A stretch of 64,000 nucleotides of DNA from contig BPKG01000002.1 in NCBI GenBank assembly GCA_026005015.1, forward strand, positions 124,001 to 188,000, read 5' to 3'. Below the pieces are notes generated by a model, which had not been told where the DNA came from, searched no databases, and was given only the letters and a program-made list of their open reading frames with translations. Below, in pieces: positions 3,899 through 39,848 of the stretch. Within the stretch, counting starts at the first letter, position 1; each line of letters starts with the position of its first letter. Source of the stretch: Burkholderiales bacterium (GTDB lineage: Bacteria > Pseudomonadota > Gammaproteobacteria > Burkholderiales > UBA6910). A program made the position numbers and the translations under genes.

Positions 3899-4852
3899 TC
3901 AGCTTGGCTTCGCCTGCCTGCGCCGGTGGGCGGGAATGCCAGCGCGGGCGCTCGCGCGCGCCTGTGCGGCGATGAAGTCGGCCAGCAGCTCGAAGTCCCG
4001 GCGCCGCGGGGTGGTGCGGCGGGCCGCCAGCGCCACCGTGCGGGAGGGCACCTGGGCGGCGAAGGGCCGGGCGGTAAGCCGCGTGCCCTTGAGCAGGCCC
4101 GCCTTGAGGGTCATCTCGGGAAGCAGGGTGACGCCGAGCCCGCCTTCCACCATCTGGATGAGGGTATGCAGGCTGGTGGCTTCCACCCGGGAGCCCGAGC
4201 GGGCGCCGCGGGCGCCGCAGGCTTCGATGGCGTGGTTCCGCAGGCAGTGGCCTTCCTCCAGCAGCAGCACGGCATCGGGATCGATGTTTTTCACCGCCAC
4301 TGCCTCCGCCCGGACGAGGGGATCGTCCTCCCGGGCGACGAACCAGAACTCGTCCACGAAGAGTTCCCGCACCAGCATGTCCCCGGTGTCGTAGGGCAGG
4401 GCGATCAGGGCGAAATCCAGCCTTCCCGCCTGCACCTGCTCCAGCAGCCGCTCGGTGAGGTCCTCCCGCAGGTAAAGCTTGAGGGACGGGTAGGCCTTGC
4501 GCAGGGGCGGCAGCAGCCTGGGCAGGAGAAACGGGGCGATGGTGGGGATGACCCCGAGCCGCAGGGGACCGCCCAAGGGCTCCCCCGCCCGGCGGGCGAT
4601 GTCCGCCAGGTCCTGGGCGGCGGCGAGCAGCGCCCGGGCCCGGGCCACCACCTCCTCGCCCACGGCAGTGAGCCGCACGTGGCGCTTGTCCCGCTCCACC
4701 AATTGCACTCCCAGGACGTTCTCCAGTTCCTTAAGGCCGGCGGACAGGGTGGACTGGGTGACGTGCTGGGCCTCCGCCGCTTCGCGGAAATTGAGCCGGT
4801 CGGCGAGCTCCACCAGGTAGCCCAACTGGCGCAGGGTGGGGAGGGCAGGCAT
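3899..4852 (-). CDS. oxyR: LysR-type peroxide sensor/regulator OxyR
   Basis: 317 residues from the start MPALPTLRQLGYL. An N-terminal winged helix-turn-helix (FREAAEAQHVTQSTLSAGLK) precedes a periplasmic-binding-like effector domain. The OxyR redox pair is present, Cys203 and Cys212 in GHCLRNHAIEAC, with the same nine-residue spacing as in E. coli. The frame stays open upstream, but the family N-terminus supports 4852. It is divergent from ahpC, and a strong dyad sits between them. Established: H2O2-formed disulfide switches OxyR to an activator. The genes to its right are the expected targets. Confidence 0.92.
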   Translation of the reverse strand: MPALPTLRQLGYLVELADRLNFREAAEAQHVTQSTLSAGLKELENVLGVQLVERDKRHVRLTAVGEEVVARARALLAAAQDLADIARRAGEPLGGPLRLGVIPTIAPFLLPRLLPPLRKAYPSLKLYLREDLTERLLEQVQAGRLDFALIALPYDTGDMLVRELFVDEFWFVAREDDPLVRAEAVAVKNIDPDAVLLLEEGHCLRNHAIEACGARGARSGSRVEATSLHTLIQMVEGGLGVTLLPEMTLKAGLLKGTRLTARPFAAQVPSRTVALAARRTTPRRRDFELLADFIAAQARASARAGIPAHRRRQAKPS

Positions 4853-4871
4853 GGGGGCACCTTTAGATCGA

Positions 4872-4890
4872 TTTACACGATCAGTGTAAA
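4872..4890. promoter_or_regulatory. Inverted repeat in the oxyR-ahpC divergent promoter region
   Basis: TTTACAC-GATCA-GTGTAAA is a perfect 7-bp dyad with a 5-bp spacer. It lies about 20 bp upstream of oxyR and 85 bp upstream of ahpC. The T-N11-A symmetry suits a LysR-type regulator, so OxyR autoregulation and ahpC activation are the obvious inference. It does not match the E. coli OxyR tetranucleotide pattern closely. A second short palindrome, GATCGATC, lies at about 4906-4913. Confidence 0.5.
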
Positions 4891-4974
4891 CGAATTTTAT
4901 CATTGGATCGATCATAAAGGATGGGGCACACTGGGCGCCGTGTTCAACCGACAACCGCTCAAGGAGGTCATGAC

Positions 4975-5514
4975 ATGCTGACGATTGGCGACCGCATTCC
5001 CCCGTTCGACGTTCAGGCCGTCGTGTCCATCGAGGATGACAAGGCCTTCGCCCGCGTGACCGACCAGTCGGACGAGGGCAAGTGGAAAGTTATCTTCTTC
5101 TGGCCCAAGGACTTCACCTTCGTATGTCCCACCGAGATCGCCGCCTTCGGCAAGCTCGCGGGCGAATTCGCGGATCGGGACGCGGTGATCTACGGCGTAT
5201 CCATCGACAGCGAATACGTGCATCTCGCGTGGCGCAAGTCCCACCCGGATCTCAAGGACCTGCCGTTCCCCATGCTGGCGGACGTGAAGCGGGAGCTGTC
5301 CCAGGCGTTCGGCGTTCTGGACAAGCGGGAAGGCGTGGCGCTGCGGGCCACCTTCATCGTCGACCCGCAAGGCGTGATCCGCTTCGCTTCGGCCCACGAC
5401 CTGAACGTGGGCCGTAACGTGGACGAAGTGCTGCGCACCCTGGATGCCCTCCAGACCGACGAGTTGTGCCCGTGCAACTGGAAGAAGGGCGACCCGGTGC
5501 TCAAGGTCGCATGA
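4975..5514 (+). CDS. ahpC: Peroxiredoxin (AhpC/Prx1-type)
   Basis: 179 residues. Peroxidatic Cys51 lies in [10 protein letters not shown]; candidate resolving cysteines are in the C-terminal CPCNWKKG (Cys165, Cys167). It reduces H2O2, organic peroxides and peroxynitrite in the cytoplasm. A strong ribosome site (AAGGAGGTC at 4961) fixes the ATG at 4975. It is divergent from oxyR and 38 bp upstream of ahpD, which acts as its electron donor in other bacteria. No ahpF is visible, which fits the AhpD-dependent type of system. The C-terminal CPC is shorter than the classic VCP motif of enteric AhpC. Confidence 0.93.
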
Positions 5515-31474: not shown

Positions 31475-31519
31475 CTCTAACGCCGCGCTTCGGGCGTCGC
31501 TTGCAAGCGATTGTTAGGC
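31475..31519 (-). other. Integron attC site (short)
   Basis: On the minus strand it begins GCCTAAC (R'') and ends GTTAGAG (R'), 45 bp in all, with inner complementary segments (TCGCTTGCAAGCGA and CGCCCGAAGCGCGGCG). It lies upstream of the toxin-antitoxin cassette, marking the end of the neighbouring cassette. It is at the short end for attC. Confidence 0.65.
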
Positions 31520-31537: not shown

Positions 31538-32919
31538 GGTGTCCCAGCCGTAGTTGAAAGTTGAGGGGTGGCGGTTCCCCGGTGGATTCGAGAGAATCGA
31601 GTTCGCCAAAACCTGAAGCTCACGAAAGGAGAACCGCCATGAGCAAACGTAACACGAAACGGCCGGGCCGCGCGAGAGTGGGCGGCAAAGCTTTCCCACA
31701 GGTGCTCGATCGCCGAGGCGGGCCAGGCGCTCATCGAGGGGCTGCTCACGCTCTCGGCCTAGGCGGTGGCGGGGCCGAAGAGCCAGGGACGAGAGGTGGA
31801 GCGCGAGATCGTGTGGCACGGTCGACAGGCAGGGCGGGTCGAGCTGCTGGAGCGGCAGCTTCGGGTCGAGCGGCCCCGGCTTCGCACCCGGGGCCCTCGG
31901 GGGCGCGAGGTGGCGATTCCGGCGTATGAAGCGATGCGGCGCAATCCCCAGGCGGCGGCGAGGATGAGCGAGATCCTGCTCGCGGGCGTATCCACCCGCC
32001 GCTACGCTCCCGTGCTGCCGAAGATGGCGAAGAGCGTCGGGGTGTCGCGTAGCCAGCTCTCGCGCAAGCTCATCGCCGCGGGGGGGCAAGACTGCTCGAA
32101 GGGCTGATGGCGCGCCGTTTCGACGCGCTTGGCATTCTCGCTGTGTCCATCGACGGCCTGGTGATCGCCGGGCAGAGCGTGGTGGTGGCGATCGGCGTGG
32201 GAGCCAGCGGGGATAAACACCTGCTGGGGCTCACCCTCGGGGCCAGCGAGAACGCGGCCGTGGTCACGGACCTGCTCGCCGATCTGGTCAGGCGCGGGCT
32301 CTCGCCGGAGCGCAGGCGGCTGTTCATCATCGATGGCTCGAAGGCGCTTCGGGCCGTCATCGAGCGCACTTTCGGCGAGCGCGCCTTGATGCAGCGCTGC
32401 CGCGTGCACAAGCTCAAGAACGTGCTCGACTACCTCCCCGACTCGCTCAAGCCCCAACGCAAGGCCACCCTGAATGCGGCTTTCAAGCTCGCCCCCAAGG
32501 AGGGCATCGCCAAGCTCAAGCAACAGGCGCTGTGGCTCAAGCGCGAGCACCCGCAAGCCGCGGCGAGCCTGCTGGAGGGGCTTAAGGAGCTGTTCACCGT
32601 CAACCGGCTGGGGCTCACTCCCCGCCTCCTGCACTGCCTCGCCTCGTCCAACCTGATCGAGAATCCGAGCGGGAGGCAGCGGGCGATCGCGCGCCATGTC
32701 ACGCGCTGGCGCGACGGTGAGATGATCATGCGCTGGGCCGCGCTGTGCTATCTGGAAGCCGAGAAGGGTTGGCGAAAATCCAAGGCCATCGCGATCTGTG
32801 GATCCTGCGCCAGGCGCTCGGCTGCCCCGCCGATGCAAAGCGCGTTGACCTCGCAAGCAAGGTCGCTTAGCCTATGTTTCATCCCGCTACCTCGCACTTT
32901 CAACTAAGCGAGGGACACC
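31538..32919 (+). mobile_element. Degraded IS256-family insertion sequence
   Basis: Ends are inverted repeats: GGTGTCCC...TAGTTGAAAGT at the left and the complement of GGTGTCCC...TAGTTGAAAGT at the right. It encloses a broken mutator-type transposase. No 8-bp target duplication is visible (flanks GGTACGGG and ACCCTTTT differ), so one flank may have been rearranged. It sits within a cassette between attC sites at 31475-31519 and 32974-33036. Confidence 0.7.
31639..32907 (+). pseudogene. IS256-type (mutator) transposase, frameshifted
   Basis: ATG at 31639 (MSKRNTKRPGRARVGGKAF), then at least two frame changes: EREIVWHGRQAGRVELLERQ ... MAKSVGVSRSQLSRKLIAAG in one frame and LMARRFDALGILAVSIDGLV ... 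IIDGSKALRAVIERTF ... LASSNLIENPSGRQR in another. The DDE residues are recognisable (SIDG, IIDG, NLIEN). It cannot make a full transposase. Confidence 0.8.
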
Positions 32920-32973
32920 ACCCTTTTGGGCCATCCAAGCAATTGGTTCGGTAGCGACGCCGTAGGACCAAAG

Positions 32974-33036
32974 CAGAACGTTCCGGTTCAGCGGCGGGCC
33001 GCGCAGCGGGCCGTCCGCTGCAACCGGGTGTTAGGC
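32974..33036 (-). other. Integron attC recombination site
   Basis: On the minus strand it begins GCCTAAC, then CCGGTTGCAGCGGACGGCCC, a short loop, and GCGGCCCGCCGCTGAACCGG, ending AACGTTCTGC. The long imperfect stem with an unpaired G is typical of attC; the R' end keeps the GTT core but not RRRY. It starts 24 bp after the stop of the exchanger cassette gene. Confidence 0.75.
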
Positions 33037-33059
33037 GGTTCCACGCTCAGCAGCCATGA

Positions 33060-34160
33060 TCACTTGCTCAAGATGCGGTCTCTCGCAAGCGCTGCTGCGC
33101 CCAGAGCACCAGCAGCGTGACGCCGGGTCAGTGGAAGGACGAACCCCAGCATGGTCGAACCGAAGCTGTGAAGCGCGTCGTGCTGGGCGCTGGCAAGGAT
33201 AAGATATGTTACGTAGACCACGTAGTAAGCCAGGAACAAAGCTCCCTCCCAGCGTGCAATCCGGTGCCCGGTGCCGAAGATCGGCAGGCAGGCAAAGGCC
33301 ACCGCAATCATCACGGGGAGTGTCGAAGAACACCAGCCCCGGAGCCACCGAGAGCCCGCCCGGCGTGACTAAAGCGGCCACCCCGAGGATGCCCAACAGA
33401 TTGAACAGGCTGCTGCCGACAACATTGCCGACGGCGATATCACGCTCCCCGCGCATCGCCGCTACGACGGAAGTAGCTAGTTCCGGAAAGCTGGTGCTTG
33501 CCGCCACGATGGTCAGGCCGATGACTGCCTCGCTGATCTCCAGCGCGCGAGCGATGGACACGGCGCTGTCCACCAGCCACGTCGCGCCCAGCACCAGCAG
33601 GCCCAATCCTCCGAGTACGAGGACGATCTGCACCGGCAGACGCGCCAGCCATCCCGCGGCAGCGACGCCGAACTCCTTCGCATACTCAGCCTGCACTGCC
33701 GGGACTTCACGCCGGGTCTGCCGGATCACAAGCACGGTGTAGGCGGCAAGACCCGCCACCAGCAGCAGCCCATCGAACGGGCCAATTCGCCCATCCAGCG
33801 CCATCACCAGGACCAGCACGGACAGGCCGACGACCAGCGGCACCTCTAAGCGCACCAGTTGCTGCTGCACCATCAGCGGGGCGATCAGCGCAGCCAGCCC
33901 CAGCACGGCGAGCACGTTGAAGATGTTGCTCCCCACCACATTGCCGACGGCGATGTCGGCCTGTCCGGCAAGTCCGGACTGCACGCTCACCCGCCAGTTC
34001 CGGCGAGCTAGTGCCGAAGGCGACCACGGTCAGGCCGACCCACTAGGGGAGAGATGCCGAAGCGCAACGCCAGTTGCGACGCCCCCCGCACCAGCAGATC
34101 TGCACCAGTCAGGAGAGCGGCAAGACCCGCGATCAGAAGCACCCAGACGGTGAGTTCCAA
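33060..34160 (-). pseudogene. Na+/Ca2+ exchanger family (YrbG-like) cassette gene, broken
   Basis: From TTG 34160 the product reads LELTVWVLLIAGLAALLTGA, then by extra bases near 34040 and 33990 it changes frame twice around the alpha-1 motif VAFGTSSPELA, continues in one frame through ADIAVGNVVGSNIFN and the alpha-2 motif IVAASTSFPELATSVVAAMR, and shifts again near 33315 before MIAVAFACLPIFGTGHRI ... RILSK. Both CAX repeats are recognisable, so the ancestor was a ten-helix cation/Ca2+ antiporter. Position between two attC sites and reading direction mark it as an integron cassette. Confidence 0.8.
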
Positions 34161-34214: not shown

Positions 34215-34284
34215 GCCTAACGTAGAAGTCACCGGCGCTGTGCGGCTTTATCGCGCAGCGTCCGTGTAGACTGCCGGGTTAAGC
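34215..34284 (-). other. Integron attC recombination site
   Basis: On the minus strand it begins GCTTAAC (R'' fits RYYYAAC) and ends GTTAGGC (R' fits GTTRRRY), 70 bp apart in total. Inside, ACGGACGCTGCGCG faces CGCACAGCGCCGGT with extrahelical bases and an ATAAAGC loop. It begins 12 bp after the stop of the split lipoprotein gene, so it is that cassette's attC. Confidence 0.8.
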
Positions 34285-34409: not shown

Positions 34410-35783
34410 CACTGCTGTCCAAAACAGCCGAAACCGGACGAGCTACCCTTTGATCTGACTCGGGTTTCGGACGGGTTATGACGAGAATTCAAGATCGAGC
34501 CCCCCCATGTGCTGTCCAAGATCAGGCGAAGGCCGGCGCCGCCTGGGGCTGGGCCTGCGGGTCCGGCGGAGCGGCGAACGGTTCGTTCAGCCAAGCCCGC
34601 AGATCGCGATGGGTGAAGAGATGCATACGCAGCAGCGCCACCAGATTGGACAAGCTCCAGCCGAAGCGGGAAATGAGCTGCAGGTAGCGCAGCAGCATGG
34701 CGATCAGCGCCGTCCAGATCTGAATCTTCACCGCGTTGGCCGAGGTGCCGACGAAGGTCTTGATCTTGAGGTTTTGCTTGAGCGCCTTGAAGAAGAGTTC
34801 GACGGCCCAGCGGTCCTTGTAGATGGCCGCCACGGTGGAAGCGCCGAGCCCATGGTGGTTGGTGAGAAACACCAGCCGCTCGCTGGTATCCTCGCGCACG
34901 GCCTCGATGCGGCGCAGCAGGTGTGGGCATTTCTCTTGGGCGCCCACGCCGGTGAGCCGGATGGTCTGGTCCCTGAGGATGTTGCGGTTCTGGGGGACGG
35001 CATGCTCCTCGAGCACCTCATAGAGCGCGTTGTCCTTCATGCGGGTGACGAAGAAGACGCCCGCATCCGTCCAGTAGGCGAACAGCCGATAGTCGTTGTA
35101 GCCCCGATCATCGACCACCACGGTGCCGGCCGGGAAGGGAATGCGCCAGGCGACCTTCACATCATGGACGTTGCCCTCGGTGATGACCCCGTAGCAGAGC
35201 AGATAGCCGTCATGGTCGAGCACCAGGTGCAGCTTCACCGCGCCTTTGGTTTGGCGAAATCTTGCCCAGTCGAACACCGACAGGCACAGGTCGATCACCG
35301 TCGAGTCGAGGCTCACGAGCTTGTGCTTGAAGCGGAACTTGCGCGGTGGCCGCACGCTGCCCGAGACCCGCTCGAAGAGCCGGTAGAAGACTTGTTCGTA
35401 CAACTGCCAGGGGCGGTGGGTGTTGGCGTAGGAAAGCGACGACCTCGCCGGCGCTTCAATGCCCAGGTGGGCAAGCTTGCCTTCGCAGCTCTTGAGGCCC
35501 CCTTCGATCTCCCGCAGGGAGTGGGCGCGGCCCAACTGACAGAACATCATGGCGACGAACTGGCTCCAGCTCGACAGGACCTTCGAGGCGTATTCGGAGC
35601 CGGTTTCCCGGACCATGCGCTCAAACTCGGATAGCGCGGAATCAACTTGAGTATCTGGCTGAACATGCTGCATGATGCATTCACGACGGGCCTCCTTCGG
35701 TTGGGCAAAAGTGCGTTTGACGATGCACCCATACCCTACACCTTCGGATGGCCCGTCGTCATAACCGGTTTCGGACAAGAGTG
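34410..35783 (-). mobile_element. IS4-family insertion sequence (1374 bp)
   Basis: Left end CACTGCTGTCC and right end GGACAAGAGTG (inverted: CACTCTTGTCC) form the terminal repeats; a shared GAAACCGG follows inside each. The element is flanked by a perfect 9-bp direct repeat GGTGGTTAT (34401-34409 and 35784-35792). It carries one intact transposase gene on the minus strand and has split a lipoprotein gene cassette. Confidence 0.85.
34522..35673 (-). CDS. IS4-family DDE transposase
   Basis: 383 residues from MQHVQPDTQVDSALSEFERM. DDE residues: LVSLDSTVIDLCLSVFDWA (first Asp), VVVDDRGYNDYRLF (second Asp) and YKDRWAVELFFKALKQNLKI, the Y-(2)-R-(3)-E-(6)-K signature of IS4. An N-terminal SYANTHRPWQLYEQVF block is typical of the subgroup. 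The frame is intact, so the element may still be mobile. The frame stays open to 35778, but the family start is at 35673. Confidence 0.9.
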   Translation of the reverse strand: MQHVQPDTQVDSALSEFERMVRETGSEYASKVLSSWSQFVAMMFCQLGRAHSLREIEGGLKSCEGKLAHLGIEAPARSSLSYANTHRPWQLYEQVFYRLFERVSGSVRPPRKFRFKHKLVSLDSTVIDLCLSVFDWARFRQTKGAVKLHLVLDHDGYLLCYGVITEGNVHDVKVAWRIPFPAGTVVVDDRGYNDYRLFAYWTDAGVFFVTRMKDNALYEVLEEHAVPQNRNILRDQTIRLTGVGAQEKCPHLLRRIEAVREDTSERLVFLTNHHGLGASTVAAIYKDRWAVELFFKALKQNLKIKTFVGTSANAVKIQIWTALIAMLLRYLQLISRFGWSLSNLVALLRMHLFTHRDLRAWLNEPFAAPPDPQAQPQAAPAFA

Positions 35784-36246
35784 GGTGGTTATATAAAAGG
35801 TACCGTTCGCGACTTTGTCGAATTTAAAAAAACCCTGAGCATCGCATATCGTTTTGCGCATCAGTTGCCGATACTCTGGCGGTTCGACGTTAAAAGAGAA
35901 ATTACGGCCACCAAAACCGATGGGGTTGTAACCACGATCAACGGAACCGTATAGCGCCCCAATTCTCTCCGTTGCGTATGCTGTGGCTGGCACCAGCTCA
36001 ACCTCGCTACCGGCACACGTAACAACACCGCCTCCTCTTTGCCGAACTAGCGCACTGCTGCGGACAGTGTTGGTACCTTCGGAAAGAAGGGATTGAGCTT
36101 GGGCGACGTCAAAAGTGGACGAAATGCTCCATTTTTGTGGCTGCATTGCACAACCCGACAGCGACAACGATGTGACAGCAATCACACAACAATCCAGTTA
36201 CGCATAGAACTCCCAAAGAAAAGCGAAGATGCCGGCTTCAGGTGAA

Positions 36247-36407
36247 GCCCTAACTATAAATAGCCATCCTATCTGACGCTTTACAAAGCGTCAGATAGGT
36301 GTATATTAATACAGTAACCCGTATTTCTGCATTAAAGAATCAACGGCTTGCTTTGATTTATAAACTCCTAGAGCCAAAAAATCAAACCCGTCATCGTCGA
36401 GGCCTGC
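36247..36407 (-). promoter_or_regulatory. Probable attI and cassette/integrase promoter region
   Basis: This AT-rich stretch lies between the integrase start (36408, plus) and the first cassette (minus). On the minus strand GTTAGGG (36247-36253) is a near match to the GTTRRRY crossover core, so 36247 is the likely attI/cassette junction. The region should also hold the integrase and cassette promoters, but I cannot assign -10/-35 boxes with confidence. It includes the hairpin at 36268-36299. Confidence 0.5.
36268..36299. repeat. Perfect 15-bp inverted repeat in the attI region
   Basis: CCTATCTGACGCTTT, a 2-base AC loop, then its exact complement. It sits 110 bp upstream of the integrase ATG and 63 bp from the first cassette's start. 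It could be a transcription attenuator for the cassettes or part of attI folding. Confidence 0.6.
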
Positions 36408-36536
36408 ATGGAACCCGCACAACCCAAGTTGCTGGATCGGCTGCGCAACCGGATCCGCGTCAAGCACTATAGCATCCGGACCGAAGAGCAGTATGTCTGA
36501 GGTTCCCTCGGTTTTTCGTCTTCCAACGGGCGGGGT

Positions 36537-37424
36537 TCATGCTACCTGTTTTTCCGCATGTTGGGCACTGAGCCAGTCCTTCAGGAACTGGACTGGGGAC
36601 TTATAGCCGAGGGTTGAGTGCAGGCGCTTGCGGTTGTAGAACACCTCGATGTACTCGAAGCAGGCCGCCGTCATCTCAGCCCGCGTGGCGAAGCGCTTGC
36701 CATACACCCGCTCGTTCTTGAAGCTGTTGAACCAGCTCTCCGTCGGGGCATTGTCCCAGCAGTTCCCCTTGCGGCTCATCGAGCAGGGCATGCCGTATTC
36801 GACGAGTTTTGCCTGGAAGGACTGGCTCGCGTACTGGCTGCCCCGGTCGGAGTGGTGGATCAGCCCCGCAGCCGGCTTGCGGCGAAACCACGCCATGGTC
36901 AGGGCATCGGTCACGATGTCCGCGCTCATGCGCGGTGCAAGCCGCCAGCCCACCACCTCGCGATTGAACAGATCCAGCACGATGGCCAGGTACAGCCAAC
37001 CTTCGTCCGTCCACAGGTAGGTGATGTCAGAGGTCCACACCTGGTTCGGCGCCGCGGGCCGGAAGTCGCGCGCCAAGAGGTTCTGCGCCACCGGCAGACT
37101 GTGTTTGGAGTCCGTCGTGACCTTGTAGCGCCGCTTGTGGCGAGCACGGATGCCGTTGTCCCGCATCAGCCGCTCCACCCGATCCTTGCTTGCCGCAAAG
37201 CCCCGTGCCCGCAACGCCTTGACCATGCGGGGACTACCATAGGCACCCTTGAATTCTGCGTGAATGGCTTGGATCAGGGCCAGCATCTGGGAGTCGGCAA
37301 GCCGCTTGCGGTCAGGCTTGCCGCCGCGCTTCCAGGCCCGGTAGCCGCTCACACTCACACCCAGTACCGCGCACATCTCAGCCAGGGCGAATTGCCTTTG
37401 CGCATCAATCCAGGCGTACTTCAC
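36537..37424 (-). CDS. IS3-family transposase OrfB
   Basis: 295 residues from GTG 37424, rve integrase core: NQVWTSDITYLWTDEGWLYL (Asp), HHSDRGSQYAS (Asp) and NAPTESWFNSFKNERVY (Glu) are the DDE residues. An N-terminal HTH_21 region (AIHAEFKGAYGSPRMVKALR) is complete. Its start overlaps the orfA stop by 4 bp; the working transposase should be the OrfAB fusion made by -1 frameshifting. Confidence 0.92.
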   Translation of the reverse strand: MKYAWIDAQRQFALAEMCAVLGVSVSGYRAWKRGGKPDRKRLADSQMLALIQAIHAEFKGAYGSPRMVKALRARGFAASKDRVERLMRDNGIRARHKRRYKVTTDSKHSLPVAQNLLARDFRPAAPNQVWTSDITYLWTDEGWLYLAIVLDLFNREVVGWRLAPRMSADIVTDALTMAWFRRKPAAGLIHHSDRGSQYASQSFQAKLVEYGMPCSMSRKGNCWDNAPTESWFNSFKNERVYGKRFATRAEMTAACFEYIEVFYNRKRLHSTLGYKSPVQFLKDWLSAQHAEKQVA

Positions 37425-37717
37425 AGCGCATTCCTCGCGAAGTACGCCGTGGCTTTTTTTAGGATTTCGTTCTCCCGCTTGAGTCGGATGTTCTCGGCCC
37501 GCAGGCGCGAGAGCTCCATCTCCTCCGGGGTGACCTTCTTGCTCCCCGGGCCGTTGAGCTTGCCGGCATCAAACGCCTTGACCCAGTTACGCAGTGTCTG
37601 TTCGACCAGACCCAGGTCGCGAGCCACTGCCCCAACCGGCTGCCCATCCTTGACACGCTTGACCGCCAGCTCCTTGAACTCGGCGGTGTACTCCTGCTTC
37701 GGGATTCTTGGAATCAT
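37421..37717 (-). CDS. IS3-family transposase OrfA (helix-turn-helix)
   Basis: 98 residues from ATG 37717 ([20 protein letters not shown]). [25 protein letters not shown], then a leucine-zipper region [21 protein letters not shown]. Near its end lies AAAAAAAG (37453-37460, minus strand), the programmed -1 frameshift site that would join it to OrfB. Confidence 0.9.
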
Positions 37718-38780
37718 CATCGTCTTCCTTTCCTTGGGTTCGTCCATCTTACGTCACCCTTGGAAGACGAAATTTCGGGGGAAGCTCAGTCCATTGGGTG
37801 AAGCGGTTCATCCATTTCCACGGAAGGCGGCACCCCGAGACCATGGGAGCGCGGGAGGTTGAGGCTTTTTTGACCCATCTTGCCGTGGAGGGACGTGTCT
37901 CCGCCTCGACCCAGAATCAGGCTAAAAGCGCGCTGCTGTTCCTGTACAAGGAGGTTCTCGGCAAGGAGCTGCCTCGGCTCGAGAACGTGACGAGCGCAAA
38001 GCGTCCGGCGCGTGTGCCGGTGGTGCTGACCCGAAAAGAAGTGGATGCCGTTCTCTCGAGGCTCGAGGGCGTGGCAGCTTTGGCCGCGTGGCTTATGTAC
38101 GGTACCGGAATGCGGGTCATGGAATGCCTGTGCTTGCGGGTGAAGGACGTTGATTTCGCGCGGCGGGAGATCATGATTCGTTCGGGCAAAGGGTCCAAGG
38201 ATCGGGTGACGGTACTTCCGACGACGCTGGTCGTTCCCCTTACGGAGCACTTGGCGCGGGTCCAGCGGCTTCACGAGGAAGACCTCAAGGCGGGCCACGG
38301 TGAGGTCTATCTGCCTTATGCCCTGGCTAGAAAGTATCCGCGCGCCGGTCGGGAATGGGGCTGGCAGTACGTCTTCCCATCCAAGCGACTATCGGTCGAT
38401 CCCCGCTCGGGCTTAACACGCCGTCACCATGCGGACGAGCAGCGGCTGCAGCGCGCGATCAGAAAGGCTGCCCGAGACGCAGGAATCGCCAAGCCGGTGA
38501 CGCCCCACACCTTGCGCCATTCGTTCGCGATGCACCTATTGGAGTCCGGGTACGATATCCGCACGGTGCAGGAGCTGCTAGGGCATAAGGACGTGTCCAC
38601 GACGATGATTTATACCCACGTCCTAAGCCGGGGAGGGCGAGGGGTGGTCAGCCCGCTGGACAACAATGGCGGCGCGGGCGCTTGGCCCGGTTTGTTCGCT
38701 GTCCCGCGGGTCGAGGAACCCGCGGCACCGCCCTATGGCGCGGAGTTCGATCGCCAGGTCAAGCATGAACAGATCGGGCT

Positions 38781-39848
38781 ATGAAACCCGTTGTCCCCAG
38801 GAAAGGCCGCGGCGCTCCCTCCAACCTCCAGGGCCGCTTCGAGCGGTGGGGACGGGAGGCGTTCGACGACGGTTGGTCAAGCGAGGAGGAAGAGCTTCCC
38901 CCGCTCAAGACCGAGGTGACGCTCGTCCAGGCGAAGAGCATCCTCACCCGCAACGTCTCGCCCGACATACCCTTCGACCGCTCCATCAACCCGTACCAGG
39001 GATGCGAGCATGGGTGCATTTATTGCTACGCCCGCCCAACCCACGCCTACTGGGGTTTATCGCCCGGCCTGGATTTCGAAACCAAGCTCATCGCCAAGGC
39101 GAACGCGGCGGCGCTGCTGCGCAGTGAGCTTTCAGCGCCCGGTTACCGGCCCGACGTCATCTCCATCGGTGCCAACACCGATCCCTACCAGCCCATCGAG
39201 CGGGAGCTGAAGATCACCCGCTCGATCCTGGAGGTGCTCGCCGAGTGCGAGCACCCCTTTGGGATCATCACCAAGAACGCCTTGATCGAGCGGGACATCG
39301 ATCTCCTCGCGCCTATGGCAGAAAAGAACCTGGTCCGGGCGTTCGTCTCAGTGACCAACCTGGACAACTCTCTCGCTCGGCGGCTGGAACCCCGCACGTC
39401 CGCCCCGATGCGGCGACTGGAGGCGGTCCGGCGCCTCGCTGCGGCCGGGATCCCTGTGGGCGTCATGGTGGCGCCGGTGATCCCGTTTCTCACCGACCGG
39501 TTCATGGAAGAGGTGCTGGAGCGGGCCCGGGAGGCGGGAGCTACCCTGGCGGGCTATGTGCTGCTGCGGCTGCCCCACGAAGTGGCGCCCCTCTTCAAGG
39601 CGTGGCTCGAAGTCCATTACCCGATGAAGGCCGAGCATGTCATGAGCCTCATCCACCAGATGCGGGGCGGGCGAGACTACGACTCCAACTTCGGCACGCG
39701 CCACCGGGGCACTGGCATCTTCGCCGAGCTGATCGCCAGGCGTTTCCAGCTCGCGTGCGAGCGTCTGGGCTTCAACCGGGCCCAGCCGCCTCTCGATACC
39801 TCCCGCTTCCGGCCGCCCCGAGCAGGCTCTCAGCTCGACCTCTTTTGA
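38781..39848 (+). CDS. PA0069-family radical SAM protein
   Basis: 355 residues. The [4Fe-4S] motif [10 protein letters not shown] is followed by [13 protein letters not shown] and [15 protein letters not shown], hallmarks of the PA0069/Rv2578c group of radical SAM enzymes related to spore photoproduct lyase. The frame is intact to QLDLF. The ATG overlaps the intI stop (ATGA), so the gene was once coupled to, or captured beside, the integron. The reaction is not established for the family; DNA or nucleotide repair is often suggested. Confidence 0.88.

What the first reader, a model, noticed from the sequence alone, without database searches (positions are those of the whole stretch)
36408..37791. 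intI split after codon 30 by an IS3 element with an exact 3-bp duplication
GTC is repeated on both sides (36495-36497, 37789-37791), and excising 36498-37788 plus one copy restores ...EEQYV-HWVKRF... in frame. The rest of intI is undamaged, so the insertion looks recent and precise excision would restore a full-length integrase. The array may have been frozen by this single event.
Basis: seen in the sequence. Interest (0 to 1): 0.6.

Follow-up and report, generated by a model that had tools for sequence, protein, structure and literature searches.

The report
Integron integrase split by IS3 element
A bacterial gene-capture enzyme (integron integrase) is cut in two by a jumping DNA element; this is a common way for such genes to die, and the same genome carries another, intact integrase, so gene capture has not necessarily stopped.

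Summary
A 1,291-bp IS3-family element (36498-37788) sits after codon 30 of an integron integrase gene, between two copies of GTC. The two intI pieces, aligned as separate rows with 95 distinct relatives, abut without gap or overlap, and the long piece keeps its catalytic residues. "Recent" and "one event froze the array" are weaker.

(1) The genome has three integron integrases of different lineages: this one, an apparently frameshifted one (contig C5) and an intact one (C6). The C6 gene is 97% identical to its sister-species counterpart up to the attI core, where the arrays change completely, as a working integrase would leave them. Cassettes here might therefore still move in trans.
(2) The array also holds an IS4 element, a decayed IS256 element and attC-like sites off consensus, so decay has several steps.
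(3) The one same-genus genome has an integrase remnant beside the same downstream genes, without this IS, but lacking the catalytic domain.
(4) IS3 elements are known to transpose by copying out, so precise excision should be rare.

Inactivated integrases, IS-interrupted ones included, are already described. This is an ordinary new instance; the side finding (several integrases, shared attC types) is mildly interesting.

The parts
36408..36497 (+). intI 5' piece, codons 1-30
   Evidence: translated; six of eight fetched loci match it at 55-65%, a seventh (L126) at 50%; ends at the column next to the 3' piece
36495..36497 (+). left copy of the 3-bp target duplication (GTC)
36498..37788 (-). IS3-family insertion sequence, 1,291 bp, transposase on the minus strand; one match in this genome
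   Evidence: terminal repeats 25/31; NF033516 IS3 transposase; single match in own genome
37421..37747 (-). IS3 OrfA (108 aa, HTH_Tnp_1)
37453..37460 (-). A7G run, the likely OrfA/OrfB -1 frameshift site
   Evidence: role inferred from recalled IS3-family knowledge
36537..37424 (-). IS3 OrfB (295 aa, rve/DDE)
37789..37791 (+). right copy of the 3-bp target duplication (GTC)
37792..38784 (+). intI 3' piece: rest of the integrase with its catalytic residues and a 40-residue C-terminal tail; its stop overlaps the start of the next gene (ATGA)
   Evidence: TIGR02249 448 bits over the first 290 residues of the 37795-38784 query; conserved residues; tail 40 residues against a median of 2 in the 88 of 95 relatives where the motif before it was found
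36248..36254 (-). candidate attI core (reads GTTAGGG on the minus strand; last base off consensus)
   Evidence: read; same side of intI as the attI core of the intact integron; inferred
35736..36185 (-). lipoprotein-like ORF, probable first cassette; its 3' end runs into the IS4 region
   Evidence: no Pfam or NCBIfam hit
34522..35778 (-). IS4-family transposase ORF inside the array; ends of the element not settled
   Evidence: NF033592 249 bits, cut-off 115; end search gave only short imperfect repeats
34215..34284 (-). attC-like site between first and second cassette; the only hit of the strict scan in the 64-kb window
33031..33990 (-). sodium/calcium exchanger ORF, probable second cassette
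   Evidence: PF01699
32973..33036 (-). attC-like site with one core off consensus (GCAGAAC on the plus strand)
   Evidence: sequence printed; 92% identical over 59 nt to a site in the C5 array, 89% over 57 nt to a site in the sister's contig C43
31535..32922 (+). decayed IS256-family element in the array
   Evidence: 27-nt terminal repeats, 22 matching, reading frame broken; best ORF below the NF033543 cut-off
31475..31519 (-). short attC-like site, one core off consensus
   Evidence: relaxed scan

Best explanation
An IS3-family element transposed into codon 30 of the integrase gene of an ageing chromosomal integron, duplicating 3 bp, and knocked that integrase out. The 5' piece has no catalytic domain; the 3' piece lacks its native start and the beginning of its N-terminal domain. 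Shown: element, ends, duplication, frame, catalytic residues, presence of another intact integrase gene. Inferred: loss of activity; that the C6 integrase works and might still excise cassettes of this array in trans. The order and age of the insertions in the array cannot be resolved.
For: Anatomy. Pieces abut exactly. Catalytic residues kept. N-terminal domain matched only from position 25. One copy of the IS here; nearest full-length copies elsewhere 76-79% identical. In this genome two integrases are damaged and one is intact. The C6 intI and leader are 97.3% identical to the sister's over 1,399 bp, homology ends at the attI core and the arrays beyond differ. Integrase inactivation is frequent in print: 43% (46% in another passage) predicted inactive (PMC3108266 passages).
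Against: A reading from a TTG inside the IS (37708) runs in frame through the 3' piece for 358 codons, and in-frame starts follow at 37798 and 37843, so a truncated protein could be made. Activity was not tested for any integrase. The C5 frameshifts could be assembly or sequencing errors. I have no reads for this genome, so a mixture of cells with and without the IS cannot be excluded. The published 43-46% did not count events over 100 bp, so it does not measure IS insertions.
Confidence: 0.9

Rival explanations
1. Recent single event: the integron worked fully until this insertion, which alone froze the array, and precise excision could reopen it.
For: No frame-breaking damage in the 3' piece. 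Departures from conserved columns are within the range of relatives: 6 against a median of 2, with 18 of 92 relatives at 6 or more. One copy of the IS.
Against: Other elements in the same array, one of them decayed; attC cores off consensus; the only same-genus genome found has also lost the integrase beside the same downstream genes, by another lesion; an intact integrase elsewhere. Copy-out-paste-in does not repair the donor (recalled; IEE needed for IS629).
Confidence: 0.25
2. The 3' piece is still expressed from a start inside or just after the IS and works as a truncated or IS-fused integrase.
For: Open in-frame reading from 37708, its first 28 codons from the IS end and duplication; catalytic residues present.
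Against: Only a GGGA three bases before the TTG at 37708, too close for a usual ribosome-binding site (my reading); the first 24 positions of the IntI profile are missing.
Confidence: 0.06
3. The insertion is an assembly artefact.
For: Reads are not available to me.
Against: Exact element ends and a target duplication; one match in this assembly, so no repeat-driven misjoin is expected.
Confidence: 0.02

Closest known systems
Inactivated integrases of chromosomal integrons (Xanthomonas and others)
   Same: Integrase lost by frameshift, stop, deletion or IS interruption while cassettes remain (PMC12444791 and PMC9229058 passages; PMC3108266 passages).
   Different: Here an intact integrase of another lineage remains in the same genome; I did not check how often that occurs elsewhere.
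CALIN (cluster of attC sites lacking an integrase)
   Same: One proposed origin is loss of a recognisable intI through mutation, insertion or deletion (PMC8618304 passage).
   Different: intI is still recognisable and next to the array, so this is an integron with a broken integrase, not a CALIN.
IS3-family insertion sequences
   Same: OrfA/OrfB with an A-run between them, TGA...TCA ends, 3-bp duplication.
   Different: Nearest full-length copies found are 76-79% identical; partial matches in 2 plasmid records reach 90-95%. I had no ISfinder, so name and subgroup are open.

Membership tests
IS3-family insertion sequence | OrfA (HTH) and OrfB (DDE/rve) in overlapping frames | tested here: met
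   PF01527 and PF00665; NF033516 368.9 bits for OrfB, cut-off 160
IS3-family insertion sequence | A-rich -1 frameshift site near the OrfA/OrfB overlap | tested here: met
   A7G at 37460-37453, minus strand; actual frameshifting not testable here
IS3-family insertion sequence | terminal inverted repeats with TGA...TCA ends and a short (3-5 bp) duplication | tested here: met
   25 of 31 terminal bases; GTC/GTC; 3 of 7 related copies with 3-4 bp duplications, 4 of 7 without
Integron integrase (IntI) | tyrosine recombinase matching TIGR02249 above cut-off | tested here: met
   448 bits, cut-off 265, for the 3' piece alone; 0 of 14 control genomes over the cut-off
Integron integrase (IntI) | catalytic R, H, R, H and Y | tested here: met
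Integron integrase (IntI) | uninterrupted reading frame | tested here: not met
   frame split by the IS; so it is a broken IntI gene, not a working member
Integron integrase (IntI) | recombination activity | not testable with these tools
   needs an assay
Chromosomal integron | cassettes with attC sites beside intI, read away from it | tested here: met
   one site passing the strict scan (34215-34284); two further sites with one core off consensus. The scans are home-made; in L120 one of two hits lies inside a long ORF and is probably false
Chromosomal integron | attI site between intI and first cassette | tested here: inconclusive
   candidate core 36248-36254, last base off consensus (read)

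The most novel reading that the evidence does not exclude
One cell keeps several integrons of different descent that share attC types, and a single intact integrase (C6) serves the arrays of the two broken ones in trans, so losing a resident integrase is nearly neutral and its array stays in circulation instead of freezing.
Probability: 0.2. Interest if true: 0.4.

Novelty: new member of a known kind. Interest (0 to 1): 0.17.

Why it matters
On its own it adds one clean case to the known list of dead integrases. The wider setting (three integrases of separate lineages in one genome, one intact beside two broken, attC types shared between arrays) gives a natural system to ask whether an orphaned cassette array is really frozen or is still served in trans.

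Tried and rejected
Rfam scan of the window: 0 matches at gathering score. tRNA scan: 0. A strict attC scan gave one hit in the whole window; relaxed rules, printed only for 27-37 kb, added one; a third (32973-33036) I saw by eye and confirmed by its likeness to other sites.

I considered whether the 40-residue C-terminal tail is a stop-loss scar: in the DNA comparison with the sister only the start of the next gene matched, but two rows grouped with this integrase in the tree (L097, L057; support 83/83) have tails of 29 and 31 residues, so it may be a trait of the group; left open. I considered departures from conserved columns as a sign of decay after the insertion and rejected it: 18 of 92 relatives, the intact C6 gene with 11 among them, have as many or more. 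DNA upstream of intI did not align with the sister above shuffled controls, so the same-locus claim rests on the rSAM/glycosyltransferase side alone. I did not look for IEE in the genome.

Rows dropped: 108 loci had an integrase match spanning most of the piece and 105 of them enough N-terminus. From the 105 I removed 4 copies of the window itself and 6 duplicates, leaving 95; for the count and the tree also three aberrant rows (L013, L028, L081).

Full report
Observation. ATG at 36408 opens a frame of 30 codons that ends in GTC (36495-36497); a 1,291-bp element follows (36498-37788), then GTC again (37789-37791) and a frame that runs to a stop at 38784. The element has two minus-strand genes, OrfA 37421-37747 (HTH_Tnp_1) and OrfB 36537-37424 (rve); both hit NCBIfam's IS3 transposase model, OrfB above its cut-off. 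An A7G run lies at 37460-37453 on the transposase strand, and the terminal repeats match at 25 of the first 31 bases. The ends are not guessed from this copy alone: full-length relatives on plasmids (best 76.6%, Cupriavidus campinensis) and in other genomes of the order (best 79%) share them. Partial matches reach 90-95% in 2 of the 358 plasmid records hit. Of seven relatives with both flanks held, three have a 3- or 4-bp duplication (L139, L147, L148) and four have none (L138, L140, L146, L149); L137 has no left flank; for L139 and L140 the first five bases were extrapolated. In the order-level search 116 of 300 genomes had some match, most of the listed ones partial; the same-genus genome and both same-family genomes had none, but only 2 candidates per listed genome were scored, so its misses are soft. 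In the window's own genome the element has one match.

The gene. The 3' piece alone scores 448 bits on TIGR02249 (integron integrase, cut-off 265) from profile position 25 on, and Pfam's N-terminal SAM-like domain is matched from its position 25. The 5' piece matches the N-termini in six of eight fetched loci at 55-65%, and in L126 at 50%. As separate rows in one alignment the pieces abut without gap or overlap. The catalytic R, H, R, H and Y are present and the same in 92 of 92 relatives counted; the lysine is present too, and is lysine in 86 of 92. The piece departs from 6 of 135 columns that are at least 90% conserved in 95 relatives; 18 of 92 relatives depart at 6 or more, the intact C6 integrase at 11, so this is no sign of decay. 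No stop occurs in 330 codons; 105 of 2,970 single substitutions would make one. By my arithmetic that excludes, at 5%, only about 83 or more neutral substitutions (about 8%). 'Undamaged' holds; 'recent' is only loosely bounded. The 3' end has a tail of 40 residues after the SPLD motif, against a median of 2 in the 88 of 95 relatives where the motif was found; five of these have 20 or more. Its stop overlaps the start codon of a PA0069-family radical SAM gene (38781-39848).

The genome. TIGR02249 gives nine matches in the 3.38-Mb, 7-contig genome. Two are over the cut-off: contig C6 (468 bits; an open frame of 331 codons) and this one (452 bits). Three pieces on C5 (214, 183 and 44 bits) belong to one gene whose parts lie in three reading frames (4706-4780, 4771-5262 and 5259-5609 of L121), thus two frameshifts if the assembly is right. 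The other four are weak (83 bits or less) and I take them for other tyrosine recombinases, unchecked. In a tree of 94 rows the three integrases lie in different groups; support near the window's integrase is weak (83/83) and the bootstrap had not settled, but C6 and its counterpart in the same-genus genome G001 form a 100/100 pair well away from it. C6 gene and leader are 97.3% identical to that gene over 1,399 bp; the identity starts at the attI core (GCCTAAC, L120:10669 and L123:7298). To the left, in the stretches held, the two arrays share only three matches of 169-299 bp, none of them next to attI in L120. Different cassettes behind a near-identical integrase, with the break at the crossover site, is what a working integron would leave; activity itself was not tested.

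The array here. Going left from intI: a candidate attI core (36248-36254), a lipoprotein-like ORF whose 3' end runs into an IS4-family element, an attC-like site (34215-34284), a sodium/calcium exchanger ORF, another attC-like site (32973-33036), a decayed IS256-family element and a short attC-like site (31475-31519). Further left are a thiopurine-methyltransferase-like fragment, a MazEF pair and a GNAT acetyltransferase. Nine array ORFs were scanned with Pfam and four with NCBIfam; none was recognised as drug resistance. Smaller ORFs were not scanned and no resistance database was used. The 32973-33036 site is 92% identical over 59 nt to a site in the C5 array and 89% over 57 nt, in the opposite orientation, to one in contig C43 of G001, which also holds the intact integrase; weaker or shorter matches (82-88%) lie in G001 and G002, and none in G003. 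One of its cores is off consensus. attC types are thus shared between arrays, although by DNA no cassette gene of 28-40 kb matched the C5 or C6 stretches compared.

The same-genus genome. In G001 the radical SAM gene (88-90% identical) and the glycosyltransferase gene (97%) downstream are conserved, and an integrase remnant lies in front of them. It has no element at the corresponding site. It keeps about the first 80 integrase residues in an open frame of 125 codons, and nothing of the catalytic domain was matched there. It is only 60% identical to the window's gene over 50 residues, so it may be a decayed ortholog or a different integrase; the other flank is cut by the contig end. At this place, then, integrase function seems to have been lost by two different lesions in two species.

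Mechanism. The best reading is loss of one integrase by an IS3 insertion in an ageing integron, in a genome that keeps another, probably working, integrase. Whether the array is frozen depends on the C6 enzyme. A published assay tested IntI1 on synthetic cassettes with VCR sites (PMC5371416; I saw a figure-legend passage, not the result). I recall that attC recognition is generally broad and attI recognition narrower, so excision in trans is plausible and re-entry at this attI less so. Precise excision of the IS is not the expected product of the copy-out-paste-in pathway that is described for IS911 of this family. For IS629 precise excision is transposase-dependent and mediated by the extra protein IEE (PMC9330008 passages). 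I did not test whether IEE is present.

Known or new. One study predicted 43% (46% in another passage) of integrases inactive, not counting events over 100 bp (PMC3108266 passages). [quoted passage not shown] a Shewanella paper names interruption by insertion sequences among the causes there (PMC9229058 passage). CALINs are proposed to arise in part by loss of intI (PMC8618304 passage). So this is a new instance of a known kind. The searches cover open-licence PMC papers only; of the six papers used I saw passages, not whole texts.

The host. Its relatives come from an order with dozens of families, and the 80 best named integrase matches kept are mostly metagenome-derived Pseudomonadota. I did not establish a species name.

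Noticed in passing
L126 (G001:C9), about 5222-4181, minus strand: The same-genus genome carries an in-frame intein-like insertion with a LAGLIDADG domain inside its PA0069-family radical SAM gene (Pfam LAGLIDADG_3 2.9e-12; Intein_splicing 7.8e-7, below its curated cut-off). The window's copy (38781-39848) has none.
   Followed up: partly
window 36268-36299: A perfect 14-bp inverted repeat with a 4-nt loop lies between the candidate attI core and intI (read); role unknown (terminator, regulator site or part of attI).
   Followed up: no
L121 1-556 and window 32369-32922: Contig C5 begins inside a copy of the IS256-family element that sits in this array (98.6% identical over 556 bp), so the C5 array may continue beyond the contig break.
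   Followed up: partly
L121 4625-5609: A third integron integrase in the same genome, with two apparent frameshifts, beside an array with several attC-like sites and two near-identical neighbouring ORFs (2026-2328 and 2445-2747).
   Followed up: partly
window 38660-38784: The integrase has a 40-residue C-terminal tail that overlaps the start of the radical SAM gene by 4 nt; tails of 29 and 31 residues occur in two rows grouped with it in the tree.
   Followed up: partly
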